A DNA stretch of 64,000 nucleotides from Pseudomonas putida. GTDB lineage: Bacteria > Pseudomonadota > Gammaproteobacteria > Pseudomonadales > Pseudomonadaceae. This document shows positions 29,780 through 64,000 of this stretch, in pieces. The stretch covers positions 3,596,001 to 3,660,000 of the forward strand of contig NZ_CP011789.1 in the NCBI RefSeq assembly GCF_001636055.1, in the 5' to 3' direction. Below the pieces are notes generated by a model. It did not search any database. It saw nothing but the letters and a program-made list of their open reading frames with translations, and was not told where the DNA came from. The position numbers were made by a program, and so were the translations under genes. The first letter of the stretch is position 1. Each line of letters starts with the position of its first letter.

Positions 29780-30991
29780 TCAGAACAACCCCGACACCGG
29801 TGGGCGGGTGCCCTTGAGCTGCCAGGCCCCGACCACCGCCGCCTTCCACTGCCGTGGATTGTGGTTGGCCACGGTCCGGGCATTGCGCCAATGGCGGTCG
29901 AGATTGTGCGCGCGCCCGGTGGTCGAGGCGCCGCCGACGTCGAACAACGTCTCGGCCGCTTTGAGTGCAAGCTCTGCGACCAGGTACTGGGCCTGCGCCA
30001 CCTCAAGGGCAGCCTGCTCCACCGCTGCCTCGTCCAACTGCGCCGCCCAGGCCCGGTCGATCGTGGCGGCCGCCTTCAGCACCAGCGCCTCGGCGCCGTA
30101 GGCGCGCGCTGCGATATCGCCCACGCTCAGTTCCACATACGGGTCGTCCACCGAACGACTGGCCGTGCTGTGCTTGATCGGCCGGGCATGCTCGCGAGCG
30201 AAGCGGGTGGCATCGTCCAGCGCATTGCGGGCGATCCCGGCCAGCACGGTGCCCAGGAACAGCTGCAGGAACGGCGTCACCAGCGTGCGCCTGCCCTCCT
30301 CCACGGTACGCGTGCGCAGTTCGCTCTCCTCCACCCGCACATTGCGCAGGTGCGTGGTGCCGCTGGCGGTCAGGCGCTGGCCCATGGCATCGAAATCATC
30401 GACCAGCTCCAGGCCATCGCGATCACGCGGGAGGATGAACGACACCGGTTGCTCGTCCTCATCCAGCGCCACCGCGCTGACATAGTCGGCGAACAACGCT
30501 CCGGTGCTATAGAACTTGCTGCCATTGGCGCGATAGTGGTCACCCTCGCGGACCAGCCGTGCGGCGATGGCACCATTGGCGCCGCCGAGTTCCCAGCCGG
30601 CATTGCCGATCACCGCGCCTTGCAGGTAGCGCGCGAACCAGCGCTCGCGCTCCTGTTCGGCATCCTCTGCGCTCGACACCAGCAGGCCCTCGACAAAGGC
30701 GAAACCCGGGCGCAGGGCCTGGGCAACGTTGGAATCGGCCGACGCGATCTTCAGCAGCAGCTCGATGACATCGCTCACCGTGCCACCGGGCCCACCATAG
30801 CGGGTCGGAATGCGCACGGTGTAGAGCCCGGCCGCAGCCAGTTGGGCAATGGCCTCGAAAGGCAGTTGGCGCTCACGCTCGCGTTCGGCCGCACCGGCGG
30901 CGATATGTGGCAGCAGTGCATCGATGCGCACCTTCAAGGCCTCGACGCTGGCGGCGGGAGCTTGGGAGGGGAAACGTTGGAAGGTGGTCAT
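29780..30991 (-). CDS. Acyl-CoA dehydrogenase-fold flavin monooxygenase, SfnB/SfnC/DszC-like
   Basis: 403 residues. The three acyl-CoA dehydrogenase domains are visible: a helical N-terminus (FEAIAQLAAAGLYTVRIPTRYGG), a middle beta domain (GNAGWELGGANG; NGSKFYSTGALFADYVSA), and a C-terminal helical bundle ending NPRQWKAAVVGAWQLKG. No acyl-CoA catalytic Glu is evident. The sequence looks like the sulfur-acquisition oxidoreductases that use reduced FMN on sulfur compounds. Its ATG is 10 nt after the stop of the ABC ATPase gene, with AAGGA as RBS, so it is the last gene of a five-gene operon with a sigma-54 promoter. Substrate unknown. Confidence 0.82.
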   Translation of the reverse strand: MTTFQRFPSQAPAASVEALKVRIDALLPHIAAGAAERERERQLPFEAIAQLAAAGLYTVRIPTRYGGPGGTVSDVIELLLKIASADSNVAQALRPGFAFVEGLLVSSAEDAEQERERWFARYLQGAVIGNAGWELGGANGAIAARLVREGDHYRANGSKFYSTGALFADYVSAVALDEDEQPVSFILPRDRDGLELVDDFDAMGQRLTASGTTHLRNVRVEESELRTRTVEEGRRTLVTPFLQLFLGTVLAGIARNALDDATRFAREHARPIKHSTASRSVDDPYVELSVGDIAARAYGAEALVLKAAATIDRAWAAQLDEAAVEQAALEVAQAQYLVAELALKAAETLFDVGGASTTGRAHNLDRHWRNARTVANHNPRQWKAAVVGAWQLKGTRPPVSGLF

Positions 30992-31001
30992 GGGGCAATC
31001 C

Positions 31002-32711
31002 TTAAATGGCGATTTTCCAGAGGCGTGATTCATCGAACAGGTCGAAGGCTTCGTGTTCCAGGTCCAGCGGCGGCACCACCAGCTCGGCGCCGCTGCCCGG
31101 CAGGCGCGGCACCGAGCCGAGCAGACGGCGGGTGTATTCGTGGGCAGGCTGCTCGAACAACTGCTCGACCGGCGCGTGCTCGACCACCTGGCCATGGCGC
31201 ATCACCAGCACGTCATCGCTGACATGGCGAATCACGCCCAGGTCGTGGGAGATGAACAGATAGGCCAGGCCCAAGGTGTCCTGCAGGTCGGCCAGCAGGT
31301 CGAGTACCTGGGCCTGTACCGACACGTCCAGCGCCGACACCGGCTCGTCGCAGATGATCAGCTTCGGCTCGCTGGCGATGGCGCGGGCGATCGCCACACG
31401 CTGGCGCTGGCCGCCGGAGAGCTGCAACGGGCGGCGGCTGGCCAGGCTGGCCGGCAGGCGCACCTGTTCGAGCAGCACATGAACGCGCGCCGGGCGCGCC
31501 GCAGCCGCGAAGCCCGCCACCTGCAAGGCGTCATCGAGGATCTGTGCCACGGTCCAGCGCGGGTCGAACGAACCCAGCGGATCCTGGTAGATCACACTGA
31601 TCTGCTGGCGCAGCGGGCGGCGGCTGGCTTCGCTCACGGCATTGCCCGGGCGGTTCCATGGCTGGCCGCGATACAGCACCTCGCCCTGGTCCGGTTGCAG
31701 CAGTCCGAGGGCAATGCGCGCAACCGTGGTCTTGCCCGAGCCGGACTCACCGACGATGCCCAGGGTCTGCCCGGCGCGCAGGGTGAAGTCCACGCCCTTG
31801 ACCACCTGACGCACAACGCCGTCAGGGCCGGTGTAGCGCTTGCCCAGGCCATGGGCCTGCAGCAGCACCTCGCCAGGCACGACGCTACGCGCTACTCGCT
31901 CGCCCGAACGCTCCGGCGACAGGCGGCTGCCACGCGGATGCTCCGCCGGCACCGCGGCCAACAGCGCCTGGGTATAGGGATGTCGTGGCTGGCGCAGCAC
32001 CTGCTGCATCGGCCCCTGCTCCACCACCTCGCCATGGCGCAGCACCACCACCTCATCGGCCAGTTGCGCGACCACCGCCAGGTCATGACTGATGATCAGC
32101 AACGATGCCCCCCGCGCCTTGATCTGCTGGAACACCTCAAGAATCTGCGCCTGGACCGTGGCATCGAGCGCAGTGGTGGGTTCGTCGGCGATCACCAGCG
32201 CCGGATCCAGTGCCAGCGCACTGGCGATCAGCGCCCGTTGGCGCAGCCCTCCAGAAAGCTGGCCTGGCCGCTGCCGCGCACGCAACGCCACATCCGGCAC
32301 CCCGACCCGTTCGAGCAGCGTCAGCACGCGCGCAGCGCGCTGCGCCCGATCTCCATAGCCATGGGTCTGCAACACCTCGAGGATTTCCTTGCCCACGGGC
32401 CGCAGCGGGTCGAGCGACACCAGCGCATCCTGCAGCACGAAGCCGATATCCTTGCCACGCACCGCACGCCACTGACGCTCGCTCAGGGCCAGCAGGTCGC
32501 GACCGCCAAAGCCCAAGGTGCGCGCGGTCACCTCGCCACGCGCACCCACCAACCCCACCAGGCTGCGGGCGCTGACGCTCTTGCCCGAGCCAGACTCCCC
32601 CACCAGGGCCACACAGCGACCCGGCGCCAGGGTGAAAGACAGTTCACGCACCACGCTGCGGCCTTCGAACGTCACGTTCAGGCCCTCGACGATCAAGGTC
32701 TTGTCGCTCAT
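31002..32711 (-). CDS. Dipeptide/oligopeptide-type ABC transporter, double ATPase (DppD-DppF fusion)
   Basis: 569 residues with two full ATPase domains in one chain. First half: Walker A GESGSGKS at about 38-45, signature LSGGLRQR, Walker B LVIADEPTTALD. Second half: Walker A GESGSGKT at about 318-325, signature LSGGQRQR, Walker B LIICDEPVSALD. Each half ends in an oligopeptide-type extension. It powers the importer formed with the two permeases upstream. The ATG overlaps the permease stop (ATGA). The 49 extra residues in the frame upstream are not used. Confidence 0.92.
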   Translation of the reverse strand: MSDKTLIVEGLNVTFEGRSVVRELSFTLAPGRCVALVGESGSGKSVSARSLVGLVGARGEVTARTLGFGGRDLLALSERQWRAVRGKDIGFVLQDALVSLDPLRPVGKEILEVLQTHGYGDRAQRAARVLTLLERVGVPDVALRARQRPGQLSGGLRQRALIASALALDPALVIADEPTTALDATVQAQILEVFQQIKARGASLLIISHDLAVVAQLADEVVVLRHGEVVEQGPMQQVLRQPRHPYTQALLAAVPAEHPRGSRLSPERSGERVARSVVPGEVLLQAHGLGKRYTGPDGVVRQVVKGVDFTLRAGQTLGIVGESGSGKTTVARIALGLLQPDQGEVLYRGQPWNRPGNAVSEASRRPLRQQISVIYQDPLGSFDPRWTVAQILDDALQVAGFAAAARPARVHVLLEQVRLPASLASRRPLQLSGGQRQRVAIARAIASEPKLIICDEPVSALDVSVQAQVLDLLADLQDTLGLAYLFISHDLGVIRHVSDDVLVMRHGQVVEHAPVEQLFEQPAHEYTRRLLGSVPRLPGSGAELVVPPLDLEHEAFDLFDESRLWKIAI

Positions 32712-33571
32712 GGCAGGCGGCCCTCCAGGCGGTGTTGAAGGTAGCGGCCGGCCGCGGTGGTCGCTAACGTGGTGAGTACGATGAACAGGCCGGGGAAAAA
32801 GGTCAGCCACCAGGCGCTGGCGATGAAATCGCGGCCCATCGACAGCATGGTGCCCCACTCAGGCGCAGGTGGTCGGGCACCAAGGCCCAGGAAACTCAGG
32901 GCAGATGCCCAGACAATGGCTTGACCGACGCCCATGGTCAGGGTCACCACCAACGGCCGCATGGCATTGGGCAATAACTGACGCAAGACAATGCGTGCGG
33001 TCGGGTGCCCCAGCGCTCGCGCCGCTTCGATATAGCCCGAATTGCGCACCGCCAGCACCTGGCCGCGGACCATCCGCGCGTAGCCAGGAGCCCCACCCAG
33101 ACCGGTGGCGATGATCAGTGGGCCAACACCGCTACCGAACACCGCCACGAACAGCAGCGCCAGCACCAGGCTGGGAAAGGCGAACAGCACCTCCAGCAGC
33201 CAGCCCACGCCACGATCCACCCGCGCCCCGCCCAATCCGCCGAGCAGCCCGAGGCTGACGGCGATGGCCATCGACAGCAAGGTGGCCGCCACGCCGATCA
33301 GCAGGCTCTGACGCGCGCCGTGGACGATACGCGCGAAGATGTCGCGCCCCGACTGGTCGGTGCCCAGCCAGTGCGTCCAGCTCGGTGCCTGGAAGGCCTC
33401 ACGAGGCACGATCGCCAACGGGTCGATGCGAGTGAACAACCCCGGCGCCAGCGCCGCCAGCAATAGCGCCAGCAGGAACAGGATCGCCAGGCTCGCCCCC
33501 AGCGGCGGCCAGGGCAAACGCACTTGTCGACGCACTGGCGTCTGGCTGTGTTCAAGAATCAGGTCGCTCAT
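32708..33571 (-). CDS. ABC transporter permease, DppC type
   Basis: 287 residues with about six helices and the peptide-transporter permease signature GYIEAARALGHPTARIVLRQLLPNA (EAA loop). The short cytoplasmic N-terminus and HWLGTDQSGRDIFARIVHGAR are usual for DppC/OppC. ATGA overlaps are present at both ends. The start at ATG 33571 is fixed by the overlap with the upstream permease stop. Confidence 0.92.
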   Translation of the reverse strand: MSDLILEHSQTPVRRQVRLPWPPLGASLAILFLLALLLAALAPGLFTRIDPLAIVPREAFQAPSWTHWLGTDQSGRDIFARIVHGARQSLLIGVAATLLSMAIAVSLGLLGGLGGARVDRGVGWLLEVLFAFPSLVLALLFVAVFGSGVGPLIIATGLGGAPGYARMVRGQVLAVRNSGYIEAARALGHPTARIVLRQLLPNAMRPLVVTLTMGVGQAIVWASALSFLGLGARPPAPEWGTMLSMGRDFIASAWWLTFFPGLFIVLTTLATTAAGRYLQHRLEGRLP

Positions 33572-34551
33572 GCGCTCGTCTCCTGTTGGCGTGGGTCGAT
33601 CCATTGATAGAGCAGGTCCACGAGAACGTTGGCCAGCACGTAGGCAGCAGCCACCACCAGGGTGATGCCGATCACCAACGGCAAATCCTGCAGTTGCACC
33701 GCCTGGTACAACTGACGGCCCACGCCCTTGCGCGAGAAGATCACTTCGCACACCACCGCCCCGCTGATCAGCGCACCGATGGCCCAGCCCGACAGCGACA
33801 CGCCCGGCAGCAGGGCGTGGCGCAGGGCATGCCGGAAGCGCACCGCCAGGTCGCTCAGGCCACGGCTGCGGGCGCTGAGGATGAAGGGCTGATCGAGGGT
33901 CAGCTCGAGTGATTCACGGGTCACCTGGGCGATGAACCCTGCCAGCGGAATGGCCAGGGAGAATGCCGGCAGCACGAGGCTTGCGAGGCTATCGCTGCCC
34001 GCCGGCGGGAACCAGCGCAAGCCGAAGGCGAATACCGCCAGCAGCACCACCCCCAGCCAGAAGTGCGGCAAGGCGGCGCTGAGGGTTTCAGCCAGCGAGG
34101 CGAGTCCGCCGATGAGCCGGCCACGGCCAGCCGTGACCACCGTCAGCAGCAGCACCAGCAACCAGGCCAGCACCAGTGCGGCGAACGTCAGCTCGAGGGT
34201 TGCCCCGGCCTGTTCCGCCAGCACGCGGGTCACAGGCTGGTGCTGGGAATAGGACTGGCCCAGGTCGCCCTGCACCAGACGCCCGAGATACAGCGCGTAT
34301 TGCACCGGCAACGGTTTATCCAGGCCGTACTCGCGCCGGGTTGCCTCGATGGCCTCCGGCGTCGGGTTGCCGGTGGTGCCACCGAGAATCGCCAGCACCG
34401 GGTCACCCGGCATCAGACGCAGGGCGAAGAACGTCAGGGTCGCCACCGCCCACAGCACCAGCAGGCCGCCGCCCAGGCGAATGGCGGCGCGACGTCCGAG
34501 CACACGCAGGCGCTCGCGACGGGGATCGGTCAGGGTCGTCGTTTCACTCAT
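33568..34551 (-). CDS. ABC transporter permease, DppB type
   Basis: 327 residues with about six helices. It has MPGDPVLAILGG, DKPLPVQYALYLGRLVQGDLGQSYSQ and LTLDQPFILSARSRGLSD, as in DppB/OppB/NikB. It pairs with the DppC-type gene to form the membrane channel. The start at ATG 34551 is chosen because its ATGA overlaps the stop of the binding-protein gene; the frame extends four codons further. Confidence 0.92.
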   Translation of the reverse strand: MSETTTLTDPRRERLRVLGRRAAIRLGGGLLVLWAVATLTFFALRLMPGDPVLAILGGTTGNPTPEAIEATRREYGLDKPLPVQYALYLGRLVQGDLGQSYSQHQPVTRVLAEQAGATLELTFAALVLAWLLVLLLTVVTAGRGRLIGGLASLAETLSAALPHFWLGVVLLAVFAFGLRWFPPAGSDSLASLVLPAFSLAIPLAGFIAQVTRESLELTLDQPFILSARSRGLSDLAVRFRHALRHALLPGVSLSGWAIGALISGAVVCEVIFSRKGVGRQLYQAVQLQDLPLVIGITLVVAAAYVLANVLVDLLYQWIDPRQQETSA

Positions 34552-36182
34552 TTGCTCACCCATGCGTCATAGAGGTAGGTCACCGCCAGCGAGGGCTCCA
34601 GGCGCACACCGTGGGCCGTCTTGTAGAGGCCCAGCCGGGTGCTCTGCGGGTAAGTGGTCAATTGCAGGTACTGGCTGGCGGCCTGTTGCTGAGCCTTGAA
34701 GTACAGCGCCCGACGGCGCTCCGGGTCCTGGGTGGCGAGGGCGTCGTCGAGCAGCGCGTCGAAGCCCGGATCGGCGAAGCCTGAGGAGTTCTGGTGATAG
34801 CCGCCGACGCCTGCCGGCTGGACGAACGCCGAGCCAAAGATGATGCGCAGCACATCCGGGGTGTTGGTGTTCCAATAGCCGGTGCGGATGTCATAGTCCC
34901 AGGCGGCCTGACGCGCGGTGACCTGGGCGTCGCTCATCTGGTCGATCACCAGCTCCAGGCCGGCCTGACGGGTGGTGGCCTGCACCTGCTCCCAGAGGGT
35001 CAGCTCCGAAGGCGGTGTACGCGCGCCGATCAGCACCACCGCGCTCAGGCGCTTGCCATTGCGTGTGCGGTAACCCTGCGCATCACGCCCGGTCCAGCCT
35101 GCGTCATCGAGCAATCGGGCGGCGCGCTGCGGATCGTAGTCCTGGCTGCGCTCGAACTCGCCGCTGTAGAACGGCGTGGCCACGCTGAGCGGGCCGCCGG
35201 CTCGCGGAAACTCGCCGAAGTACACACTCTTGAGCGCACCTTCGATATCGGCGCTGCGCACGAAAGCTTCGCGCACACGGATATCATCGAAGGGCGCCCG
35301 GCGCAGGTTGAACGTGCCGTTGGTGGGGTTGCCGGGACGCTGGGCAATGATCAGCTCGACATCCGGATTGCGCCGCGCCGCCTCGTGCGACTCGGGCGGC
35401 ACGCTCTCGATCACGTCCACCTCACCGGCCTGCAGCGAGGCGAAACGCACCGAAGGCTCCTGGATGAACTTCCACACGATACGCTCGAGATACGCCGGGC
35501 CCTGGTGCCTGGCAGTCGGCGGCGCCCAGTTGTAGTCGGCATTGCGAACCAGCTCGACCTGGTTCTGCCGGTCCCAGCGCAGCACCTTGAATGGCCCGCT
35601 GCCCACCGGGCTTTCGCAGTTCTCGTCACGGCTGCGCTTGAGCGCGGTGGGTGACTGGATACCGAGAAAGCCTTGGGCGAGCACTTCGAGGAAGGCGGCG
35701 TAAGGCGTGGCCAGGTGCACCACGGCGGTGTATTCGTCGACGATGTCGGTGCCGCGATACTGGCGGATATAGCCGCCTGCGGTGCTGGACTGGGTCTTGG
35801 GGTCGGCCATGTGGTCGAGATTGGCCTTGACCGCCTGGGCATTGAACGGCGTTCCGTCGGTGAAATGCACGTCGTGGCGCAGGTGGAAGGTGTAGCTCAG
35901 GCCATCGGCGGACGCCTCCCAGCGCTCGGCCAGCCAAGGGCCGATACGGCCGTCGCTGTCCATCGACACCAGCGAATCCAGGTACTGCTGGGCCACGAAC
36001 ACTTGCGGCATGTCACCCGCCACATGCGGGTCCAGGCAGGTGGGCTCGCGGTCGGTGGCATAGACCAGGGTTCCGCCGCGCACCGGCTGGTCGCTATGGG
36101 TCGTGACCTGCTCGGCACGCTCGCAGCCGACCAGCGCCAGCACGGCACAGAGCGGGATCAAAGGGAAGTTGAGTCGGTTCAA
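34548..36182 (-). CDS. ABC transporter substrate-binding lipoprotein, SBP_bac_5 family
   Basis: 544 residues from a TTG start. The signal peptide ends in a lipobox (ALVGC, C20). The mature part has DREPTCLDPHVAG, the SBP_bac_5 signature region (LRHDVHFTDGTPFNAQAVKANLDH) and VGSGPFKV. It binds peptides or related small organic compounds in the periplasm. TTG 36182 has AGGAG 5 nt upstream and is 27 nt downstream of the transcription start predicted from the sigma-54 element. The ATG at 36218 lies upstream of that point and lacks an RBS. First gene of the ABC-monooxygenase operon. The ligand is probably sulfur-containing, by context only. Confidence 0.88.
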   Translation of the reverse strand: MNRLNFPLIPLCAVLALVGCERAEQVTTHSDQPVRGGTLVYATDREPTCLDPHVAGDMPQVFVAQQYLDSLVSMDSDGRIGPWLAERWEASADGLSYTFHLRHDVHFTDGTPFNAQAVKANLDHMADPKTQSSTAGGYIRQYRGTDIVDEYTAVVHLATPYAAFLEVLAQGFLGIQSPTALKRSRDENCESPVGSGPFKVLRWDRQNQVELVRNADYNWAPPTARHQGPAYLERIVWKFIQEPSVRFASLQAGEVDVIESVPPESHEAARRNPDVELIIAQRPGNPTNGTFNLRRAPFDDIRVREAFVRSADIEGALKSVYFGEFPRAGGPLSVATPFYSGEFERSQDYDPQRAARLLDDAGWTGRDAQGYRTRNGKRLSAVVLIGARTPPSELTLWEQVQATTRQAGLELVIDQMSDAQVTARQAAWDYDIRTGYWNTNTPDVLRIIFGSAFVQPAGVGGYHQNSSGFADPGFDALLDDALATQDPERRRALYFKAQQQAASQYLQLTTYPQSTRLGLYKTAHGVRLEPSLAVTYLYDAWVSK

Positions 36183-36219
36183 GGGCGCTCCTGCGGATGA
36201 CTGGGCATGCAGGGGCATT

Positions 36220-36235
36220 TGCAGGAGTTGTGCCG
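36220..36235 (-). promoter_or_regulatory. Sigma-54 promoter of the ABC-monooxygenase operon
   Basis: Read on the minus strand: CGGCACAACTCCTGCA. GG and GC are exactly 10 nt apart; the -24 part is GGCAC and the -12 part TGC followed by A, close to TGGCACG-N4-TTGCW. The expected start of transcription is near 36209, 27 nt before the TTG start codon. Confidence 0.75.
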
Positions 36236-36310
36236 GGTTTCAACCCCCTGATTTTGCTGGGATTTGCCAAATACGTGGTGATCGATGGCGGGCAAAGTGT
36301 GCGCAGGGTG

Positions 36311-36341
36311 TTGGCAAGCCAACAGTTGAACTGTCAGTTCA
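36311..36341. promoter_or_regulatory. Two palindromes between the divergent ABC operon and lysE-like gene
   Basis: TTGGC-AA-GCCAA (36311-36322) and TGAACTG-T-CAGTTCA (36327-36341). The second is a perfect 7-1-7 dyad. Its centre is about 125 bp upstream of the sigma-54 start, in the range used by enhancer-binding activators. It is also about 46 bp upstream of a start inferred from TATACT (36368-36373) for the LysE gene, so either gene could be the target. Confidence 0.45.
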
Positions 36342-36436
36342 TACCCATGCATAAAGACAAGCGGCCCTATACTCCGCACTCACAGGGCCGCTTCCGCGCA
36401 GCGGGCCCGCCGCCCCTTCCCCTACAAGGCGTTCTC

Positions 36437-37085: not shown

Positions 37086-37093
37086 GCAAGACG

Positions 37094-39319
37094 CTACAAC
37101 GACCAGTCCAGGCTGACCATCAGGGTGCGCGGTTCGCCGTTATAGACGCCGTTGTAGAACCCCAGGTTGTTGTAGTAGTGCTCGTCGAACAGGTTCTTCA
37201 CGTTCACCGAGGCCGACAGGTGTTCGTCGACCTGGTAGCGGGCCATCAGCCCGACCACCGAGAACGCCCGCTGGCTCATGCGGTCCCTGACGGTGATGAT
37301 GCCACCCGATGCATTGCGCCCCACCGGGCGGTTGCCGACACCGAAGGTGTGGCTCTGCCAGTCGAGGGTGCCGCCCACGGTCAGTTTTGGCAGCACCTTG
37401 TAGGTGCTCGAGAAACGCACCAGATTCATCGGTCGGGCCGTGTCCTTGCGCGTCTTGTCGCCACGCAGCGCGTGGGTGTAGCTGTAGCCCAGGCTCATCT
37501 GCCAGTCCGCCATCACCTCGCCTGCCAACTCGGCCTCGAAGCCCTCGACCACCGCCCCCTTGCCACCGGACTTGTAGTACTGCTCGCCGTTGGGGCCTGG
37601 CGGCACAGAGTCGTCGACCTCCGCAACGTTGTCCTGCTTGCTACGGTACACCGCGGCGCTGAGGTTGGCCCGATCCTCGAACAGGCTGCCCTTCAGGCCC
37701 AGCTCGTAGACCTTGCCCACGACCGGGTCCAGGTACTTGTCGCTGATGTCCTTGTTGGTCTGCGGGTTGAAGATGTCGGTGTAGCTGACATAGACGGTGA
37801 ACTGCTCGTTGAGGTCGTAAAGCACACCGGCATAGGGCGTCCACTGGTCGTTCTGGGTCTGCTCGCTGCGGGAGATGTCGGTGACCGCCAGGTTGTCATC
37901 GTATGTCCAGGGCTTGCTGGTGGTCTTCCAACTGCCGTAGCGGCTGCCAAGGACCAGGTGCAGGCGATCGGTGGGGTTGAGCCGGGTAGCGATGTAGCCG
38001 GCCTTCTGCTCGATGCGCGAGCGCGATTCATCCAGGCCAGTCTTGCGATCGTAGAACTTGGGAATCCCGCCCATGTATTTCCAGTCGGGGATGATCGCGT
38101 AGCCCTGCGGATCGTTGCGGCCGGTGTAGTACGGCGAGCTGTCGCGTCGCTCGGAGACCCCGTAGCCGATCATGAAGTCGTGGGTACGGCCCAGCAGCTG
38201 GTAGGGGCCGGCAAGGTTGAAGTCCACGGCATCCATCTGCTCCTCTCCGGAGAAATGACTGCTCCAGGCTTTCATGCCACTGCGGTCGGCCTCGGGGAAG
38301 CCATTGCCGCCGTAGTAGACCTTGCCGTCGCTGTCGCTCTGGCGGTGGGTGTAGGCCGCCTTGAGCAGCCAATCATTGCCCAGTTGCTGATCGAGCGTGG
38401 CGAACACCGTCTGGTCCTTCAGCGGCCAGGACGACCAGGGCGCCGCCAGGTTGGTCGAGCGCGGCAGGTTGGCCTTGCTGCCATCGGCGTTCCAGTAGGG
38501 CACGGTGCCCCAGCTGGAGCCCTGGACATGCTTGTTCTGGTAGTCGTAGCCGACCGCCAGCACCGTGCTGTCGGTAAGGTCGGCCTCGAGAATGCCGTAG
38601 GCCACCTCACGTTGGGTCTGGTAGTGGTCCATGTACGACGTGTTGTCGCGATAGGCCAGCACCGTGCGCCCACGCAAGCGCCCGTCCCAGCCCAACGGGC
38701 CGCCAACGTCCAGGTAGCTGTAGTAATTGTCGAAACTGCCGGCACTGATGCCGGTCTTCACCGCCAGCTCATGGGTCGGGCGTTTGCGCACCATGGCGAT
38801 GGTGCCGGAGGGATCACCCGCGCCGGTGGTCAGGCCGGTGGCGCCACGCACCACCTCGATACGGTCGTAGATGATGGTGTCGGAGTCGGACTTGAGCCCC
38901 GAGAAGGTGTTGAGCATTCCATCGATCTGGAAGTTGTTGATCGAGTAGCCGCGCGCATAGTACGTCGGTCGCTCGGAGTCGTTGCGCTGGACGGTCACGC
39001 CAGTGACGTGGCTCAGCGCTTCGGACAGGGTGTCGAGCTGGAAGTCGTCCAGCTGCTGGCGGGTCAGCACCGAGACCGATTGTGGGGTTTCCTTGATCGA
39101 CAGGTTCAGGCGCGTGGCGGCGCTCATGCTGCCGGTGGTGTAGGAGCCGGTGTGCTCGGTGGTGCTGCCCAGGCCCTGGGCGAGGATTTCGGTGGAGCCG
39201 AGCTCCAGTACGCCTTCCTCGGAACGCTTTTCGCGCTCTTCGGCCAACCCTGCCGGGCTGATGACGGTGGCGCACAAACCCAGGGTGAGGGTCATGCTAC
39301 GGCTGATGGGCGCGAACAT
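37094..39319 (-). CDS. TonB-dependent siderophore receptor (FhuE/FpvB-like)
   Basis: 741 residues. The signal peptide ends near SPAGLA. The plug has ETPQSVSVLTRQQLDDFQLDT, YYARGYSINNFQIDG and DRIEVVRGATGLTTGAGDPSGTI. The barrel ends MVSLDWSL. There is no N-terminal signalling domain, unlike FpvA. The plug pattern fits receptors of hydroxamate or pyoverdine-type ferric siderophores. ATG 39319 has AAGGAG 9 nt upstream. The promoter region carries a good Fur box, so it should be induced by iron limitation. No biosynthesis genes adjoin. Confidence 0.92.
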   Translation of the reverse strand: MFAPISRSMTLTLGLCATVISPAGLAEEREKRSEEGVLELGSTEILAQGLGSTTEHTGSYTTGSMSAATRLNLSIKETPQSVSVLTRQQLDDFQLDTLSEALSHVTGVTVQRNDSERPTYYARGYSINNFQIDGMLNTFSGLKSDSDTIIYDRIEVVRGATGLTTGAGDPSGTIAMVRKRPTHELAVKTGISAGSFDNYYSYLDVGGPLGWDGRLRGRTVLAYRDNTSYMDHYQTQREVAYGILEADLTDSTVLAVGYDYQNKHVQGSSWGTVPYWNADGSKANLPRSTNLAAPWSSWPLKDQTVFATLDQQLGNDWLLKAAYTHRQSDSDGKVYYGGNGFPEADRSGMKAWSSHFSGEEQMDAVDFNLAGPYQLLGRTHDFMIGYGVSERRDSSPYYTGRNDPQGYAIIPDWKYMGGIPKFYDRKTGLDESRSRIEQKAGYIATRLNPTDRLHLVLGSRYGSWKTTSKPWTYDDNLAVTDISRSEQTQNDQWTPYAGVLYDLNEQFTVYVSYTDIFNPQTNKDISDKYLDPVVGKVYELGLKGSLFEDRANLSAAVYRSKQDNVAEVDDSVPPGPNGEQYYKSGGKGAVVEGFEAELAGEVMADWQMSLGYSYTHALRGDKTRKDTARPMNLVRFSSTYKVLPKLTVGGTLDWQSHTFGVGNRPVGRNASGGIITVRDRMSQRAFSVVGLMARYQVDEHLSASVNVKNLFDEHYYNNLGFYNGVYNGEPRTLMVSLDWSL

Positions 39320-39382
39320 CGCTGCCTTTCTCCTTGTTCGATTCGATGAAAGTCCTGGATACCGGTTGACCGGCATTCATAT

Positions 39383-40825: not shown

Positions 40826-40928
40826 TGAAATACTCGGATTAACAGTCGAACGGGCGGCGAGTATACCGCCGCACATTCGCGGATGGGAGCAACCGTCTTG
40901 CTCACACCCTTGAAAGCAGACCTGCCGC

Positions 40929-47297: not shown

Positions 47298-47363
47298 ATC
47301 GCGGGGCAAGCCCGCTCCTGCAGGTACGACGCCGTACCTGCAGGAGCGGGCTTGCCCCGCGAT
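47298..47363. repeat. REP pair forming a perfect 30-bp inverted repeat
   Basis: ATCGCGGGGCAAGCCCGCTC and the next ten bases (47298-47327) are exactly complementary to 47334-47363, with a 6-nt loop. It lies 8 nt beyond the nfuA stop, so it probably also ends or stabilises that transcript. The wider gap 47087-47371 also holds a 9-bp dyad at 47198-47224 (CCGCAGCCC) and nothing else recognisable. Confidence 0.8.
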
Positions 47364-51630: not shown

Positions 51631-51712
51631 TGAGACCGGGCGATGCGCCTAAAATCCGTGCAGCTTTGTTATTATTCCGCACTTCCGTTATTTGTCCGAC
51701 CAGGTAGTTCTC

Positions 51713-55420
<3,708 letters not shown>

Positions 55421-56545: not shown

Positions 56546-56792
56546 GATGCATTCCTGGCAGTTGAAGCGCGCCCTCATAGTGCACGAATAAATTTAGACC
56601 CAAAAATTATTAATAAATATTTATATATTCGAAATTAACATATTGAAAAAATCAACACCTCGATTGCTGCTGGAGCAGCAGCGGGCCAGCAATGGCCTGC
56701 GCAGGGATCAGCAGCCAGGCCATCGCGAGGGCTCTGGGTTGAGGGCCTGAAGGCCTAGTGCCACCGGGGCTGGAGCGGATCCGGGCCGGTGC

Positions 56793-56808
56793 TGGCATGC
56801 ATTTCGCT
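56793..56808 (+). promoter_or_regulatory. Sigma-54-like promoter for the SsuA-LLM operon
   Basis: TGGCATGCATTTCGCT: GG and GC are exactly 10 nt apart. It matches TGGCACG-N4-TTGCW except at one base in each element. The start of transcription would be near 56820, leaving a 166-nt leader before the first gene. Confidence 0.6.
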
Positions 56809-56853: not shown

Positions 56854-56939
56854 CATCGCGGGGCAAGCCCGCTCCCACAGGTTCAGCGCAGGTCCTGAGA
56901 ACCGCGCGGTACCTGTGGGAGCGGGCTTGCCCCGCGATG
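56854..56939. repeat. REP pair, 29-bp perfect inverted repeat
   Basis: 56854-56882 (starts CATCGCGGGGCAAGCCCGCT) is exactly complementary to 56911-56939, with a 28-nt spacer. It lies between the sigma-54-like promoter and the SsuA-like gene, so it would be in the 5' leader. Confidence 0.8.
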
Positions 56940-56985: not shown

Positions 56986-58059
56986 ATGAACACCCCCTGG
57001 CGTCACGCCCTGGCCCTGCTCACCGGCCTGCTACTGAGCTTCTCCACCATCGCCGCCGAAGCCCCGCCCGCCGTGCGCATCGCCATCGTCGCCTTCACCC
57101 AGGGCGGCGCGCCGGTATTCGGCGGCATCCCTGGCCGGGTCATCGAAGAGGGCTGGCTGGCACAACAACTGGCCGAGCGCGGCGTCAAGCTCGAATGGGT
57201 CGCCCTGCCCCACGCCGGCGCCGGTCCGCAGATCAACGAGGGCTTCAGCAACAACAGCCTGGACTTCGCCGTGCGCGGCGACCTGCCGACCGTGATCGCC
57301 GGTGCCGGTGGCGTGCCGGGCAAGCTGGTCGTGCCCGGTGGCAGCGGCAACAACATCTACCTCGTCGTGCCCACCGACTCGCCAGTGCGCAGCATCCAGG
57401 ACCTCAAGGGCAAGCGCCTGGCCCTGCACCGTGGCCGTCCGTGGGAGTTCGCCTTCAGCAATTTCCTGCACAGCCAGGGCCTGAGCCTGGCCGACTTCAA
57501 GATCGCCAACCTCAACCCGCAGGTTGGCGCCGCCGCGGTGTCCGCCGGCAAGGTCGATGCCGCCGTGCTGCTCAACGAAGCCTATGCCCTGGAAGACAAA
57601 GGCGTGGCGCGCATTCTCTGGTCGACCAAGCAAGGCGCCAACGACTGGCGCCTGGTCTCCGACCTGTTCGGCACCGATTTGTTCGTCGAGCAGCACCCCG
57701 ACCTCACCCAACTGGTCGCCACCGCCTGGGTCAAGGCCGCCTGGTGGATCTCCCAGGCAGAGAACCGCGACGCCTACTACACGCTCTCCTCTCGCGCCGG
57801 CATTGCCGAAAGCGTGCTGCGCCGCGATGACCAGGACGACCCGGTGGCCTGGAAAGACCGCTGGGCACCGAAGACCGACGCCCAGCTCGAAGCCCATTAC
57901 CAGGCCCTGGCCCGCTACGCCCTGGAGAACCGGCTGATCCGCACGCCCTACGACATTCGCCACGACCTCGCCACCCACTTCACCCGCCAGGCCCTGCAAG
58001 ACCTGCAGCTCACCGGCTACTGGCCTGCGGTCGCCACGCAATTGAGCAAACAACCCTGA
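56986..58059 (+). CDS. SsuA/NMT1-like ABC substrate-binding protein
   Basis: 357 residues with a signal peptide of about 24 residues (LLSFSTIAAEA). It is a type II periplasmic binding fold: VRIAIVAFTQGG, then LDFAVRGDLPTVIAGAGG, and IQDLKGKRLALHRGRPWEFAF, where SsuA family members contact the sulfonate. It should bind an alkylsulfonate-like or other organosulfur anion. No SsuB/SsuC partners follow. GGAG lies 6 nt before the ATG. First gene of the run activated, by inference, by the SfnR-like protein. Confidence 0.85.
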   Translation: MNTPWRHALALLTGLLLSFSTIAAEAPPAVRIAIVAFTQGGAPVFGGIPGRVIEEGWLAQQLAERGVKLEWVALPHAGAGPQINEGFSNNSLDFAVRGDLPTVIAGAGGVPGKLVVPGGSGNNIYLVVPTDSPVRSIQDLKGKRLALHRGRPWEFAFSNFLHSQGLSLADFKIANLNPQVGAAAVSAGKVDAAVLLNEAYALEDKGVARILWSTKQGANDWRLVSDLFGTDLFVEQHPDLTQLVATAWVKAAWWISQAENRDAYYTLSSRAGIAESVLRRDDQDDPVAWKDRWAPKTDAQLEAHYQALARYALENRLIRTPYDIRHDLATHFTRQALQDLQLTGYWPAVATQLSKQP

Positions 58060-58081
58060 ATTTCCGAAAAGAGACCCGTCC

Positions 58082-59305: not shown

Positions 59306-59317
59306 AGGAGGCCCGAC

Positions 59318-60517
59318 ATGAGCATCGAGTTCTTCACCCGCCTGCCACTGCATGGCGAAACGCAGTTTCTTCCCGGCGACAGCCGCAACCGCGGCGACTG
59401 GCACCCGGGCGGGCCGAGCACCGGCGCGGTATCGGGGTTCGCCGTGGGTGATCACTTCACCTACATCGACTACCTCGGCCAGGTGGCCCGCGCCGCCGAG
59501 ATCAACGGCTTCGGCGGCGCGCTGATGGTCAACGCCCCCAGCGGCGAGGAGCCCTGGACGGTGTGCTCGCTGCTGGCCCGCGAGACCCGGACACTGAAGT
59601 TCGTCACAGCCTTCCAGCCCTATCACTACACGCCCTGGGTCGCGGTGCAGCAGGCGGCGACCTACCAGCGAGCCACCGGCAACCGCCTGGTCTGGAACAT
59701 CATCAACGGCGGCTCGGACGCGATCCAGCGCCAGGTCGGCGACTACGAAAGCCACGATGACCGTTATGCGCGCGCCACCGAGTTCATGGATGTCGTCAGG
59801 GGTTACTGGCACAACGAGCAGTTCCACTACGACGGGAAGTACTACCACGCCGACGGCGGTGGCCTGCGCGGGCCGCTGAGGAAGGCCGAGTTGCCGCTGA
59901 TCTGCACCGCCGGCTCGTCGGTCGCGGCGCGTGAGTTCGCCGCCAAGCATGCCGACTTCTACCTGATGCGCGCCGAGCACCCGGACGAAATCGCCGCGCT
60001 GATCGCCGACATCCGCGCCCGCGCATTGAAGTACGGACGCAACGACATCCGCTTCGGCCTATCGATCGATGTGATCGCCCGCGAGACCGAGACCCTGGCC
60101 CGCGCCGAGGCGCAGCGCTTCTTCGACGAAGGCATCGCCAAGGGCGCGGTCAAGGCCAGGGCCGCCCACGCTGGCCTGCGCACGGCACGCAAGCTCAGCT
60201 ACGAGCAAGGCTTTACCGACAAGGGCGATACCCCCGGCATCGACGACTTCTTCATCCATCCCAATGTCTGGACCGGCTTCGGCTACATCGGCATCCCACC
60301 CGGCTGCGCCCTGGTCGGCAGCTACGAGAACGTGGTGGCGCGGATCCGCGAGTACAACGCCATCGGCATCGACCTGTTCTTCCTCGCCGGCTACCCGCAC
60401 CTGGAAGAGGCCTATCGGATCGGCGAGCACATCCTGCCGCACTTCCGTGGCGAGCGCGCCGCCCTCGCCCGCCTGCCTGAAACGCCCGTGCAACTGCACG
60501 CGGCCAACGGAGCCTGA
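59318..60517 (+). CDS. LLM-class flavin-dependent monooxygenase, SsuD/SfnG-like
   Basis: 399 residues of luciferase-like TIM barrel. Features are VAVQQAATYQRATGNRLVWNIING, the SsuD-like segment VVRGYWHNEQFHYDGKYYH, CTAGSSVAAREFAAKHADFY and HPNVWTGFGYIGIPPGCALVGSY. It should use FMNH2 and oxygen to cleave a carbon-sulfur bond and release sulfite. A strong AAGGAGG lies 6 nt before the ATG. No flavin reductase gene is adjacent, so a reductase elsewhere must supply FMNH2. Confidence 0.88.
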   Translation: MSIEFFTRLPLHGETQFLPGDSRNRGDWHPGGPSTGAVSGFAVGDHFTYIDYLGQVARAAEINGFGGALMVNAPSGEEPWTVCSLLARETRTLKFVTAFQPYHYTPWVAVQQAATYQRATGNRLVWNIINGGSDAIQRQVGDYESHDDRYARATEFMDVVRGYWHNEQFHYDGKYYHADGGGLRGPLRKAELPLICTAGSSVAAREFAAKHADFYLMRAEHPDEIAALIADIRARALKYGRNDIRFGLSIDVIARETETLARAEAQRFFDEGIAKGAVKARAAHAGLRTARKLSYEQGFTDKGDTPGIDDFFIHPNVWTGFGYIGIPPGCALVGSYENVVARIREYNAIGIDLFFLAGYPHLEEAYRIGEHILPHFRGERAALARLPETPVQLHAANGA

Positions 60518-60521
60518 GCCC

Positions 60522-62075
60522 ATGACCAGGGACGGTTACCCCCTGAGCCGGCGCAGCTTCCTCGGCCATACCGGCGTGCTAGCGGGCGGGCTGTTGGTCG
60601 GTTGCGGCCCCAGCGACAGCCCGGCCACCGCAGTCGCCGACCAGCCACGCCACGGCGGGCGCCTGCGCCTGGGTATCATCGACGGCAACCAGAGCGGCAA
60701 CCTCGACGCCCACAAGCCCATCGGCAGCGGCATCGTGCGAGGCTTTGCGCTGTACAGCAAACTGTGGGAATGGGACGAGCAGATGCAGCCGCGCCTGGCC
60801 CTGGCCGAGTTCGCCGAGCCCAACGCCGATGCCAGCGGCTGGACCCTGCGCCTGAAGCAGGGCCTGGAGTTCCACCATGGCAAGACCATCGATGCCGACG
60901 ACCTGATCTTCTCCATCCGCCGCCTCACCGATCCGCAACTGGCCTCGCCCTATGCGGCGCTGCTGCACTGGGTCGATCGTGACCATCTGGAGAAGCTCGA
61001 CGAGCGCACTGTGCGCCTGCGTTTTCGCGAAGGCCGTAGCTACCTGCCGCTGCCCGAGACCTGGGTCAATTTCGGCGGCATCGTGCCGGTGGACTACCAT
61101 CCGGTCAGCAATCCAGTCGGCGCCGGGCCGTTCAAGCTCAAGAGTTTTACCCCTGGGCAACGCTCGCTGTTCACCCGTTTCGACAACTACTTCAAGCCGA
61201 ACAAGCCTTACGCGGACGAGTTGGAGATCATCGACTTCAAGGATCAGACCGGGCGCCTGGCGGCCCTGCGCGCCGGGCAGATCGACATGGCCAATGTCAT
61301 GTCCACCGAGCACCTGCAGGTGCTGCAGGCCGACCCGCGGCTGACCCTGCTCAAGTCGGTGAGTGGCAACTGGCTGTCGTTCGACATGAACACCGCCAAG
61401 GCGCCGTTCGACGACCCACGGGTACGCGAGGCCTTCCGCCTGCTGGCTGACCGTGAGGAGCTGGTACGCCGTGCGCTGAACGGTCAGGGTCGCGTGGCGA
61501 ATGACCTGTACGCCCCCTTCGACCCAACCTTCAACAACGCCCTCGGCCCGCGGCCGCACGACCCGCAGCGGGCCGCGCAGTTGCTGCGCGAGGCAGGCCA
61601 CGAACAGCTGGAGGTGGAGCTGGTGACCACACCCGGGCCGGGACTCGCCTCGGCGCTGGTACTGGCCGAGCAGGCCAAACGCATCGGCGTCACCCTCAAG
61701 GTGCGCCAGGTTGACCTGGCAACGTTCCAGGGGCCGCAGCGCGACGACTGGACCTTGAGCACCGGGGGCAGCATCGGTGCGCCGTTCCTGGCCAGCGCCA
61801 TCCATACCGATGCGCCGTTCGCGGTGACCAACAAGACCCACTTCCACGACGCGCAATTCAGCGAGGCGTTTCTCGCCGCCATGGCCCAGCCGGACCTGGA
61901 GAAGCGCAAAGTGCTGGTGCACCGCGCGCAAGAGATCCAGTACCAGCGCGGCGGGATGCTGATCTGGGGTTACGCCGACCTGCTCGACAGCGTCAGCAAC
62001 CGCGTCGGCGGGGCGCAGCCGGAGCGCTCGCTGTTCAGTACCTGGCGGTTCGAAAGTTTGTGGCTCAAGTCATGA
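60522..62075 (+). CDS. Orphan Dpp-type ABC substrate-binding lipoprotein with Tat signal
   Basis: 517 residues. The start SRRSFLGHTGVLAGGLLVGC holds a twin-arginine motif followed by a lipobox Cys (C28), so it is folded before export. The SBP_bac_5 body has LRLKQGLEFHHGKTIDADDLIFSIRR and VGAGPFKLKSF. It starts 4 nt after the monooxygenase stop. No permease or ATPase follows. It may use the Dpp-type permeases at 31002-34551, which have their own binding protein. Confidence 0.87.
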   Translation: MTRDGYPLSRRSFLGHTGVLAGGLLVGCGPSDSPATAVADQPRHGGRLRLGIIDGNQSGNLDAHKPIGSGIVRGFALYSKLWEWDEQMQPRLALAEFAEPNADASGWTLRLKQGLEFHHGKTIDADDLIFSIRRLTDPQLASPYAALLHWVDRDHLEKLDERTVRLRFREGRSYLPLPETWVNFGGIVPVDYHPVSNPVGAGPFKLKSFTPGQRSLFTRFDNYFKPNKPYADELEIIDFKDQTGRLAALRAGQIDMANVMSTEHLQVLQADPRLTLLKSVSGNWLSFDMNTAKAPFDDPRVREAFRLLADREELVRRALNGQGRVANDLYAPFDPTFNNALGPRPHDPQRAAQLLREAGHEQLEVELVTTPGPGLASALVLAEQAKRIGVTLKVRQVDLATFQGPQRDDWTLSTGGSIGAPFLASAIHTDAPFAVTNKTHFHDAQFSEAFLAAMAQPDLEKRKVLVHRAQEIQYQRGGMLIWGYADLLDSVSNRVGGAQPERSLFSTWRFESLWLKS

Positions 62076-62090
62076 TCACGCGCTGTCTGG

Positions 62091-62207
62091 GCCGGCCCTA
62101 TCGCGGGACAAGCCCGCTCCCACCGATACCCCACCGATCTCCCAGACCACGGGGTACCTGTGGGAGCGGCGGTTTGGCGCGCCGACTTGTCCCGCGATAG
62201 GGCCGGC
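62091..62207. repeat. REP pair with 22-bp outer inverted repeat
   Basis: GCCGGCCCTATCGCGGGACA with AG (62091-62112) pairs exactly with 62186-62207. Inner arms GCTCCCAC and GTGGGAGC also pair. It follows the binding-protein gene by 15 nt. The remaining 84 bases to the next gene show no clear promoter. Confidence 0.75.
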
Positions 62208-62291
62208 ACACCCCCCACATAACCCCAAAAACAACCGCAGGCGCGGCTGCGCCCCACCTCCATTCCACCCTACCCGAACGAGGCCCACTCC

Positions 62292-64000
62292 ATGCCCCGC
62301 GCAGCCCTGCACCCTGCATTCGCCCTGCTGGCCCTGGCCAGCACCCCGTTGCTGGCCGACGACACGGTCCTGCAAACCGTCACCGTCCAGGCCGAACAAC
62401 CCGACGACGACGCCCTGCCCACTCGCCCACCCTCATCGATCTACGGCGGCCTCGAAGCCAAGGTGCTCGACACCCCACGTTCGGTCACCCAGGTCAACGC
62501 CGAGCAACTGGCTCGCGACCCGATCCGCAGTGCCGACGACCTGGTCAAGTACGCCCCCGGCATCACCCGCGGCGGCGGCCAGAACGCCGGTATCGCCCCG
62601 CAGATGCGCGGCCAGAACAGCGAAGTGTTCCAGGACGGCCAGCGCGCCTATGGCGTACGCCACCCTGCCAACTTCAACGCCTATGAGGGCGCCGACATCG
62701 TGGCCGGCCCCTCGTCGGTCACCTACGGCTCGGTCAGCGGCAGCGGCGGCTACGTCAACTACCTGAGCAAGAAGCCCGACTTCGAACGTTTTCGCACCAA
62801 GCTCTCCGGTGAAATCGGCAGCTGGATCCCCGACGGCGAATCGCGCGATGCGACCAAATTCAGCATCGACAACACAGGCCCAATCAGCGACAACCTCGCC
62901 TACCGGGTCAGCATCACCCGCCAGCGCCAGGAAGACTTCTACGACAACGTCGAGAACAACTTCGACGCCTTCTACGGCGCCCTGGCCTTTCGCAACGACC
63001 ATGTGCGGGTGGACTGGAACGCCGCCTACGACGATTACTACGACTACAACATCACCCACGGCTGGAACCGCGCCACCCAGGACCTGGTCGACCACGGCAA
63101 GTACTACGCCGGCCGCGCCACACCGATCATCCAGAACGGCAATACGCTGTGGTCGCCGGTGCTGTCCTCCGGTGCCAGCGACGCCCAGGTGCTGGGCTGG
63201 GTGCAACGCCAGCGCAATGCCCAAGGGCAGTATTCGGTGGTCAACGGCAGCTTCCAGGGCGCGTCGCCCAACACCCAGGCCAACCCCGGCAGCCTGCGCG
63301 GCTGGGTCTACGACCCGTCGCTGGAAGGCAACGGCCTGACCTCGCTGTCGTCGCAGACCGGCCAGCGCGCCCAGGATGAGAACCGCTCAAGACGCTTCAC
63401 CACGCAACTGCGCATCGAAGGAGAGCTGACACCGTCGATTACCCTGACCAACAGCACCTTCTACCAGCACTCCACCGACACCACCGATGCGGTAGGCGCC
63501 TTCCAGGTCCAGGGCAAGGACGACATCTTCGACAACCGCTTCGAGTTCCGCGCCCGCGGGCAATGGCAGCTCGGCGGCCTGACCCTGGTCGACGACAGCA
63601 ACAGCGGCCTGATCTATCGCCGCGAATCGAACCAGTCGATCGCCGCCAACAACAGCTTCGGCTCGACCATCAACGCCTACGACCTGACCCAGGACCCGCG
63701 CCTGAAAAACCCAGGCGACCTGCTCGGCCTCGCCGGTCGCAACCCCGCCGGCGGCAACGCGGCCTGGATCGGCCAGCCCGGTGTGGCGCAGTTCTCCAAT
63801 CTCTACGGCTGGCTCAACCTGCCGGCCATGTACCCGGCCGGGCATGGCCTGTACGCCGAATCCATCGCGCCGTACACCGCCGACAGCACCTGGACCACCA
63901 AGACCCTGTTCAGCCAGCACAACCTGCGCCTGGGCGAACGTGCAGGCCTGAACATCGGCGCCAGCCGCAGCTGGATCGACGCACGCATCGAGAACCCCTT
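62292..64000 (+). CDS. TonB-dependent receptor, N-terminal 569 residues (runs off the window)
   Basis: The frame from ATG 62292 stays open to the window edge, so the gene is cut by the end. The signal peptide ends near STPLLA. The plug has a TonB-box-like VTVQA, TPRSVTQVNAEQLARDPIRSADDLVKYAPG, MRGQNSEVFQDGQRA and EGADIVAGPSSVTYGSVSGSGGYVNYLSKKP. Barrel strands then follow. No signalling domain. Because it follows the SsuA-LLM-SBP run on the same strand, it may carry the sulfur compound through the outer membrane rather than a siderophore. A REP pair between them leaves operon membership open. Confidence 0.88.
   Translation, partial: MPRAALHPAFALLALASTPLLADDTVLQTVTVQAEQPDDDALPTRPPSSIYGGLEAKVLDTPRSVTQVNAEQLARDPIRSADDLVKYAPGITRGGGQNAGIAPQMRGQNSEVFQDGQRAYGVRHPANFNAYEGADIVAGPSSVTYGSVSGSGGYVNYLSKKPDFERFRTKLSGEIGSWIPDGESRDATKFSIDNTGPISDNLAYRVSITRQRQEDFYDNVENNFDAFYGALAFRNDHVRVDWNAAYDDYYDYNITHGWNRATQDLVDHGKYYAGRATPIIQNGNTLWSPVLSSGASDAQVLGWVQRQRNAQGQYSVVNGSFQGASPNTQANPGSLRGWVYDPSLEGNGLTSLSSQTGQRAQDENRSRRFTTQLRIEGELTPSITLTNSTFYQHSTDTTDAVGAFQVQGKDDIFDNRFEFRARGQWQLGGLTLVDDSNSGLIYRRESNQSIAANNSFGSTINAYDLTQDPRLKNPGDLLGLAGRNPAGGNAAWIGQPGVAQFSNLYGWLNLPAMYPAGHGLYAESIAPYTADSTWTTKTLFSQHNLRLGERAGLNIGASRSWIDARIENP

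What the first reader, a model, noticed from the sequence alone, without database searches (positions are those of the whole stretch)
29780..64000. Two sigma-54 modules and an SfnR-like activator suggest a split organosulfur regulon
Seen: a sigma-54 promoter (36220-36235, minus) before a Dpp importer plus SfnB/SfnC-like monooxygenase operon, and a sigma-54-like promoter (56793-56808, plus) before an SsuA-like protein, hydrolase, LLM monooxygenase and second Dpp-type binding protein, next to an SfnR-like activator. Known: SfnR with sigma-54 turns on sulfone and sulfonate use in P. putida under sulfate limitation. Inference: both operons answer to the same activator and handle one family of sulfur compounds through two different flavin monooxygenases.
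Basis: partly seen in the sequence, partly recalled or inferred. Interest (0 to 1): 0.72.

Follow-up and report, generated by a model that had tools for sequence, protein, structure and literature searches.

The report
Two separate SfnR-type sulfur regulons
A Pseudomonas genome carries two similar-looking sigma-54 switches for organic-sulfur genes, and comparison with related genomes predicts that they are worked by two sister activator proteins that read different DNA marks, not by one shared activator.

Summary
Both sigma-54 promoters are real by conservation, but one shared activator is not supported. The GG-N10-GC element precedes operon 1 in 18 of 18 orthologues and operon 2 in 48 of 48 named Pseudomonas loci with upstream DNA (a 49th is truncated). 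Besides it, the most conserved upstream block is an enhancer-like dyad. Operon 1 has AACTGT-N8-CAACA (class A; exact in 7 of 18), centred 78-81 bp from the -24 element. Operon 2 has TGCTG-N6-CAGCA (class B), 117-121 bp away in 45 loci and 93 bp in 3. In this genome class A also precedes sfnECR and two other operons; class B also precedes promoters of an organosulfur island 115 kb away whose genes adjoin operon 2 in 22 of 49 named loci. The window's activator belongs to a sister clade (W) of the SfnR encoded in sfnECR (61% identical). All 18 operon-2 genomes have W, but 13 of 18 operon-1 genomes lack it; in 11 of 18, operon 1 lies within 16 kb of SfnR. Most likely SfnR drives operon 1 and W drives operon 2. 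Binding, sulfur response and substrates are inferred. Seven of 45 operon-2 dyads carry a class-A-like half, so cross-talk is possible.

The parts
29780..30991 (-). Operon 1: SfnB/MsuC/DszC-like flavin enzyme (acyl-CoA dehydrogenase fold)
   Evidence: TIGR04022 335.1 bits, below its cut-off 430.9; best solved relative methanesulfinate monooxygenase 6u76; start
31002..32858 (-). Operon 1: double-domain Dpp/Opp-type ATPase (ORF limits; start not refined)
32708..33751 (-). Operon 1: Dpp/Opp-type permease C (ORF limits; start not refined)
33568..34563 (-). Operon 1: Dpp/Opp-type permease B (ORF limits)
34548..36182 (-). Operon 1: SBP_bac_5 substrate-binding lipoprotein, most likely start TTG 36182
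   Evidence: PF00496; start inferred from promoter position and a Shine-Dalgarno-like GCAGGAG
36220..36235 (-). Sigma-54 element of operon 1 (CGGCACAACTCCTGCA)
   Evidence: element present in 18 of 18 orthologues
36309..36327 (-). Class A dyad AACTGTTGGCTTGCCAACA, centre 81 bp from the -24 element
   Evidence: 18 of 18 orthologues at 78-81 bp with 0-3 mismatches, 7 exact; one of 7 exact copies in the genome
55475..56578 (-). W-clade SfnR-family sigma-54 activator, no sensor domain (alternative start 56545)
56593..56622 (.). Conserved AT-rich block just upstream of the activator gene, possible CysB-type control region (inferred)
   Evidence: conservation 0.83-0.93 in 46 loci against a mean of 0.71
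56665..56680 (.). Class B dyad TGCTGCTGGAGCAGCA, centre 120 bp from the -24 element
   Evidence: 45 of 45 named loci at 117-121 bp, 3 more at 93 bp; conservation 0.95
56793..56808 (+). Sigma-54 element of operon 2 (TGGCATGCATTTCGCT)
56986..58059 (+). Operon 2: SsuA-like binding protein
   Evidence: TIGR01728 105.9 bits, cut-off 163.5; PF09084
58082..59305 (+). Operon 2: LIP-family hydrolase, probably exported (signal peptide and GQSQGG by eye)
   Evidence: PF03583; esterase 3h2g
59318..60517 (+). Operon 2: SsuD-like LLM flavin monooxygenase
   Evidence: TIGR03565 237.1 bits, cut-off 518.2; 1nqk, 1m41
60522..62075 (+). Operon 2: SBP_bac_5 protein with a twin-arginine-like lipoprotein start
   Evidence: PF00496
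62292..64000 (+). Operon 2: start of a TonB-dependent receptor that runs past the window; a second SsuD-like LLM gene follows it

Best explanation
The window holds one operon from each of two parallel sigma-54 organosulfur regulons run by sister SfnR-family activators. Regulon A (operon 1, sfnECR, an SfnB-LLM-Met-type operon, and an operon starting with an NMT1-type binding protein) carries AACTGT-N8-CAACA dyads and is most likely activated by the SfnR encoded in sfnECR about 190 kb away. Regulon B (operon 2 and the island at 3.777-3.800 Mb) carries TGCTG-N6-CAGCA dyads and is most likely activated by the W protein encoded divergently from operon 2. The activator would bind its dyad, loop to sigma-54 polymerase at the -24/-12 element and open it by ATP hydrolysis. 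Neither activator has a sensor domain, so activator amount, probably set by CysB under sulfate limitation, would be the signal. Shown here: conserved elements and dyads, spacing, linkage, co-occurrence, two activator clades with different helix-turn-helix residues. Inferred: DNA binding, activation, CysB control, sulfur response, substrates.
For: Elements and dyads conserved at constant spacing while the distance to the start codon varies from 49 to 588 bp; apart from the anchored element, the dyad is the most conserved upstream 16-mer in both operons (0.95 against a mean of 0.71; 0.82 against 0.52). In the own genome, 5 of 7 exact class A motifs (4 promoters) have a sigma-54 element 81-118 bp downstream; 3 of 12 exact class B palindromes have one of score 10 at 71-120 bp, all three at operon 2 or the island. 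W in 27 of 27 genomes with the SsuA-like gene, divergent beside operon 2 in 48 of 49 named loci. W in 5 of 18 operon-1 genomes; SfnR in 17 of 18 and within 16 kb in 11. Class A promoters in 63 of 125 SfnR genomes against 4 of 74 others; class B in 16 of 33 W genomes against 6 of 166. Separate clades, support 0.999 each; fixed helix-turn-helix differences.
Against: Half-sites overlap: 6 of 45 operon-2 dyads have one TGTTG/CAACA-type half and 1 has two. G116 has operon 1 and class A promoters but no SfnR of this clade. G076 lacks W yet has a class B promoter before a TonB receptor (assembly 93% complete, 650 contigs); 5 more non-W genomes match the class B pattern, of which the 2 examined have weak elements. 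Only 2 of 9 W-only genomes match the strict class B pattern. A fourth class B palindrome has a score-8 element at 43 bp inside an ORF. No binding or expression data.
Confidence: 0.77

Rival explanations
1. One reading: the SfnR-like activator in the window drives both operons.
For: Same sigma-54 geometry, shared TGYTG-N6-CARCA layout, same genome neighbourhood.
Against: 13 of 18 operon-1 genomes lack W; no class B dyad at operon 1 and no exact class A dyad at operon 2; operon 1 is linked to SfnR.
Confidence: 0.07
2. The SfnR of sfnECR drives both operons, and W is a minor or redundant paralogue.
For: SfnR-family proteins share the fold and both dyad types are similar; some operon-2 dyads have TGTTG-type halves.
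Against: Operon 2 with its dyad is kept in 5 of 18 genomes without that SfnR; W accompanies operon 2 in all genomes where it was seen.
Confidence: 0.04
3. Two activators with overlapping specificity: each mainly drives its own set but both bind both dyads, so the regulons are partly merged.
For: One-base difference in the half-site and mixed half-sites in 7 of 45 operon-2 dyads; G116 and G076 exceptions.
Against: Neither exact motif is found at the other operon in the own genome; separation across genomes.
Confidence: 0.1
4. The elements are chance matches without promoter function.
For: By consensus alone the window has no excess: 110 observed, 144.5 expected.
Against: Conservation in divergent orthologues at constant dyad spacing.
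Confidence: 0.02

Closest known systems
SfnR with sigma-54 in Pseudomonas putida (sfnFG, sfnAB, sfnECR); seen here only as titles in the reference list of PMC8234197 and a figure legend, otherwise recalled
   Same: Short sensor-less sigma-54 activator; sulfur-type monooxygenase operons; an sfnECR-like operon (FMN reductase, MsuC/DszC-like enzyme, activator) is in this genome with class A dyads
   Different: The window activator is a separate clade, sits beside operon 2 rather than sfn or msu genes, and goes with a different dyad
SfnR1 and SfnR2 of P. aeruginosa (named in passages of PMC8234197, PMC12581299 and PMC9602442)
   Same: A genome with more than one SfnR paralogue; SfnR1 with MsuCDE rises in sulfur-starved cells (PMC12581299 passage)
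   Different: Those group with msu genes according to the PMC8234197 legend; whether W is orthologous to either was not tested
Ssu alkanesulfonate system (SsuA, SsuD)
   Same: Nearest families of the operon-2 binding protein and LLM enzyme
   Different: Both score below the curated cut-offs; the operon adds a LIP hydrolase, a TonB receptor and a Dpp-type binding protein
MsuC and DszC flavin monooxygenases
   Same: Best solved relatives of the operon-1 enzyme
   Different: Encoded with its own Dpp-type importer

Membership tests
SfnR activator | Short sigma-54 activator: AAA+ domain with GAFTGA, C-terminal helix-turn-helix, no sensor domain | tested here: met
   367 aa, PF00158 at residues 33-198, GAFTGA in the translation
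SfnR activator | Groups with the SfnR of sfnECR rather than in a separate clade | tested here: not met
   61% identity; separate clades, support 0.999 each, 30 sequences each
SfnR activator | Encoded with sfn or msu genes (criterion recalled) | tested here: not met
   W lies between metH and operon 2; the sfnECR operon is elsewhere
SfnR regulon (operon 2) | Published SfnR binding site upstream | not tested
   The primary SfnR papers are not held; class A was derived here from operon 1 and sfnECR
Sigma-54 promoter | GG-N10-GC element at both operons, conserved | tested here: met
   18 of 18 and 48 of 48 intact loci
Sigma-54 promoter | RpoN-dependent transcription | not testable with these tools
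   needs an rpoN mutant
SfnB oxidoreductase (operon 1 enzyme) | TIGR04022 curated cut-off | tested here: not met
   335.1 bits, cut-off 430.9
SsuD alkanesulfonate monooxygenase (operon 2 LLM enzyme) | TIGR03565 curated cut-off | tested here: not met
   237.1 bits, cut-off 518.2
SsuA binding protein (operon 2) | TIGR01728 curated cut-off | tested here: not met
   105.9 bits, cut-off 163.5
Sulfate-starvation regulon | Induction by sulfate limitation | not testable with these tools
   needs culture work

The most novel reading that the evidence does not exclude
W is a dedicated activator, insulated from SfnR by a change in half-site recognition, for sulfur held in larger ester-containing sulfonates: a TonB receptor brings the molecule in, an exported LIP esterase cuts it, the binding proteins and the island's ABC importers take up the fragment, and an SsuD-like enzyme releases sulfite. 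W with the SsuD-like gene is the constant pair (48 of 49 named loci each; LIP and the SsuD-like gene stay beside W in 5 genomes without the SsuA-like gene). Against the esterase step as core: LIP is missing in 9 of 49 named loci.
Probability: 0.25. Interest if true: 0.62.

Novelty: new variant of a known kind. Interest (0 to 1): 0.47.

Why it matters
It replaces 'one SfnR regulon split in two' by 'two SfnR-family regulons with different enhancers' and gives a predicted regulon to an SfnR paralogue for which my seven literature searches listed none (open-licence library only). It offers a compact natural case of sister sigma-54 activators diverging in DNA recognition, with a one-base half-site difference and few fixed helix-turn-helix changes, which swaps of dyads or residues could test. 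It also ties a secreted hydrolase, TonB receptors, ABC importers and desulfonating enzymes into one predicted sulfur-scavenging programme.

Tried and rejected
Consensus scanning alone was uninformative. Co-occurrence of the two operons gave no signal. The first upstream alignments mixed orientations, because loci from the genome search are not turned to the match; this was redone with loci turned. A loose class B search with 2 mismatches gave 86 matches (40 + 46), most of them not followed. The strict class B pattern matched in 61 of 199 genomes; before counting I dropped by eye every match beginning TGCTGCG[C/T/A]TGGCAGCA or TGCTGCCCTGGCAGCA as a coding-type word, without checking each reading frame, leaving 16 W and 6 non-W genomes. 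Of the 20 sfnECR upstream stretches fetched, 8 yielded an sfnE start with an element 54-58 bp before it, and all 8 have an exact class A dyad; the other 12 gave no SfnE match or no usable upstream DNA. Class A pattern in genomes without SfnR: G093, G116, G170, G189, of which only G116 was considered further. The genome's third SfnR-family protein (L011) was not given a dyad. Structure prediction was not used. Papers: passages only of PMC8274868, PMC8234197, PMC13352529, PMC10949508, PMC10256816, PMC12581299 and PMC9602442; the primary SfnR papers are not held.
Full report
1. What is there. The window is 3,596,001-3,660,000 of a 5.81 Mb one-contig genome; named relatives with operon 2 are all Pseudomonas. 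Operon 1 (minus, 36182 to 29780): SBP_bac_5 lipoprotein, two permeases, double ATPase, SfnB/MsuC/DszC-like enzyme. Operon 2 (plus, from 56986): SsuA-like protein, LIP-family hydrolase, SsuD-like LLM enzyme, SBP_bac_5 protein, then past the window end a TonB receptor and a second SsuD-like LLM enzyme. Divergent from operon 2 is a sensor-less sigma-54 activator (55475-56578), flanked by metH (51692-55420, over the curated cut-off).

2. The promoters. Both elements are at the stated places but would not stand out by consensus (110 observed, 144.5 expected). In relatives they do. Operon 1: 18 of 18 orthologues at 75% identity or more. Operon 2: 18 of 18 in the genus sample and 48 of 49 named loci, the 49th (L236) being truncated. 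In 45 named loci the operon-2 element lies 49 to 588 bp from the start codon, yet 117-121 bp from the dyad centre; in L256-L258 the spacing is 93 bp and the promoter lies 1.4 kb from the SsuA-like gene, beside the activator. In operon 1 the spacing is 78-81 bp in 18 of 18; the dyad has 0 mismatches to AACTGT-N8-CAACA in 7 and 1-3 in 11. Apart from the anchored element, the dyad is the most conserved 16-mer upstream of each operon: 0.95 against a mean of 0.71 over 46 sequences for operon 2, 0.82 against 0.52 over 17 for operon 1. An AT-rich block just upstream of the activator gene is nearly as conserved (0.93).

3. Two dyads. Class A (operon 1, AACTGTTGGCTTGCCAACA) also precedes sfnECR in this genome and in 8 of 8 other genomes where the sfnE start could be placed. 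Its exact form occurs 7 times in the genome (backward control 1); 5 of the 7, at 4 promoters, have a sigma-54 element of score 8 or more 81-118 bp downstream: operon 1, sfnECR (two dyads), an SfnB-LLM-Met-type operon, and an operon starting with an NMT1-type binding protein; the other 2 are inside ORFs. A score of 8 or more is expected in 0.043 of 140-bp one-strand stretches. Class B (operon 2, TGCTGCTGGAGCAGCA): the exact TGCTGC-N4-GCAGCA palindrome occurs at 12 places (backward control 3); 3 have a score-10 element at 71-120 bp: operon 2 and two promoters, before a TonB receptor and an ABC permease, in an island at 3.777-3.800 Mb. The other 9 are inside ORFs; one of them has a score-8 element at 43 bp. 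The island's divergent SfnB and SsuA-like promoters carry variant dyads. Island genes (60% identity or more) lie within the fetched 10 kb of operon 2 in 22 of 49 named loci; no operon-1 gene at that identity does. The two forms share geometry and differ mainly by T against C in the half-site: 38 of 45 operon-2 dyads have TGCTG/CAGCA in both halves, 6 have one TGTTG/CAACA-type half, 1 has two; no operon-1 dyad has TGCTG or CAGCA in the aligned halves.

4. Two activators. The genome has three SfnR-family proteins: W in the window, one in an sfnECR-like operon at 3,433 kb (61% identical to W), and a third (54%) beside a run of LLM genes. I call the second SfnR from its gene order (FMN reductase over the MsuE cut-off, MsuC/DszC-like enzyme, activator); the name is recalled, as no SfnR model was matched. 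Over 199 genus genomes W (81% or more; next best 64%) is in 33, and SfnR in 125, after removing 9 genomes whose only match was W. In a tree of 66 proteins both are separate clades with support 0.999, and in the helix-turn-helix they differ at near-fixed positions: L/V, Q/H, G/A, I/L, V/T, E/I (30 sequences each).

5. Who goes with whom. Of the 27 genomes with the SsuA-like gene (18 at 77% or more, 9 at 45-48%), 27 have W. In named loci W is divergent beside operon 2 in 48 of 49, with gaps of 270-802 bp in 45 and about 1.6 kb in 3. Of 6 W genomes without the SsuA-like gene, 5 keep LIP and the LLM gene next to W, with dyad and element in 5 of 5; the sixth (G032) shows no operon-2 gene there. Operon 1: W in 5 of 18 (p 0.19), SfnR in 17 of 18 against 125 of 199 (p 0.004; missing in G116), within 16 kb on the same contig in 11 of 18. 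Operon 2 persists in 5 of 18 genomes without SfnR. Class A promoters by strict pattern: 46 of 101 SfnR-only, 1 of 9 W-only, 17 of 24 with both, 3 of 65 with neither. Class B after dropping coding-type matches: 6 of 101, 2 of 9, 14 of 24, 0 of 65. Leaving out sites next to W, class B is in 9 of 33 W genomes and 6 of 166 others. Of the 6 SfnR-only cases, G076 is a clear exception (class B and a score-10 element before a TonB receptor), G043 and G168 have weak elements, and 3 were not examined.

6. Reading. Operon 1 goes with SfnR and operon 2 with W; 'both answer to the same activator' is not supported. Overlapping half-sites leave room for cross-talk, and a common upstream signal such as CysB is plausible but untested. 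By relatives, the operon-2 LLM enzyme is of the carbon-sulfur-cleaving type and the operon-1 enzyme of the sulfur-oxygenating type (groups as in passages of PMC8234197). So two different flavin monooxygenases, but 'one family of compounds' is open.

7. Limits. The genus genomes are related, so counts and p values are not independent tests. The motif classes were drawn from operons 1 and 2 and then counted elsewhere; the counts at those operons themselves are not independent support. The published SfnR site could not be compared. There is no binding or expression evidence.

Noticed in passing
56856-56937: A pair of inverted REP-like repeats (GCGGGCTTGCCCCGCGA and its complement) lies between the operon-2 sigma-54 element and its first gene, so the predicted leader would fold strongly; the same word also occurs at 47299/47346 and 17063. 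REP is a recalled label.
   Followed up: partly
L011:10377-17899: A third SfnR-family activator of the genome (54% to W) sits beside a run of LLM-type ORFs and a TonB receptor-like ORF; its dyad and targets were not worked out.
   Followed up: no
L182-L185, L190, L195: In 5 of the 10 genomes whose operon-1 neighbourhood was fetched, operon 1 lies near a second, more distant Dpp-type importer with its own SfnB-like or LLM genes, suggesting a larger island of which this genome keeps part.
   Followed up: partly
L305:1501-1516: G076, without W, has an exact class B dyad and a score-10 sigma-54 element before a TonB receptor, at the same place as in G130, which has W. Incomplete assembly or another activator could explain it.
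   Followed up: partly
39611-40876 minus and 37094-39376 minus: A Sulf_transp (YeeE/YedE-type) membrane protein and a FauA/FhuE-like TonB siderophore receptor lie just upstream of operon 1; no link to it was tested.
   Followed up: no
L009:12034-15899 minus: Convergent with the end of operon 2 lies another ABC permease, a binding protein, an ATPase and an SfnB/acyl-CoA-dehydrogenase-like ORF; not assigned to either regulon.
   Followed up: no
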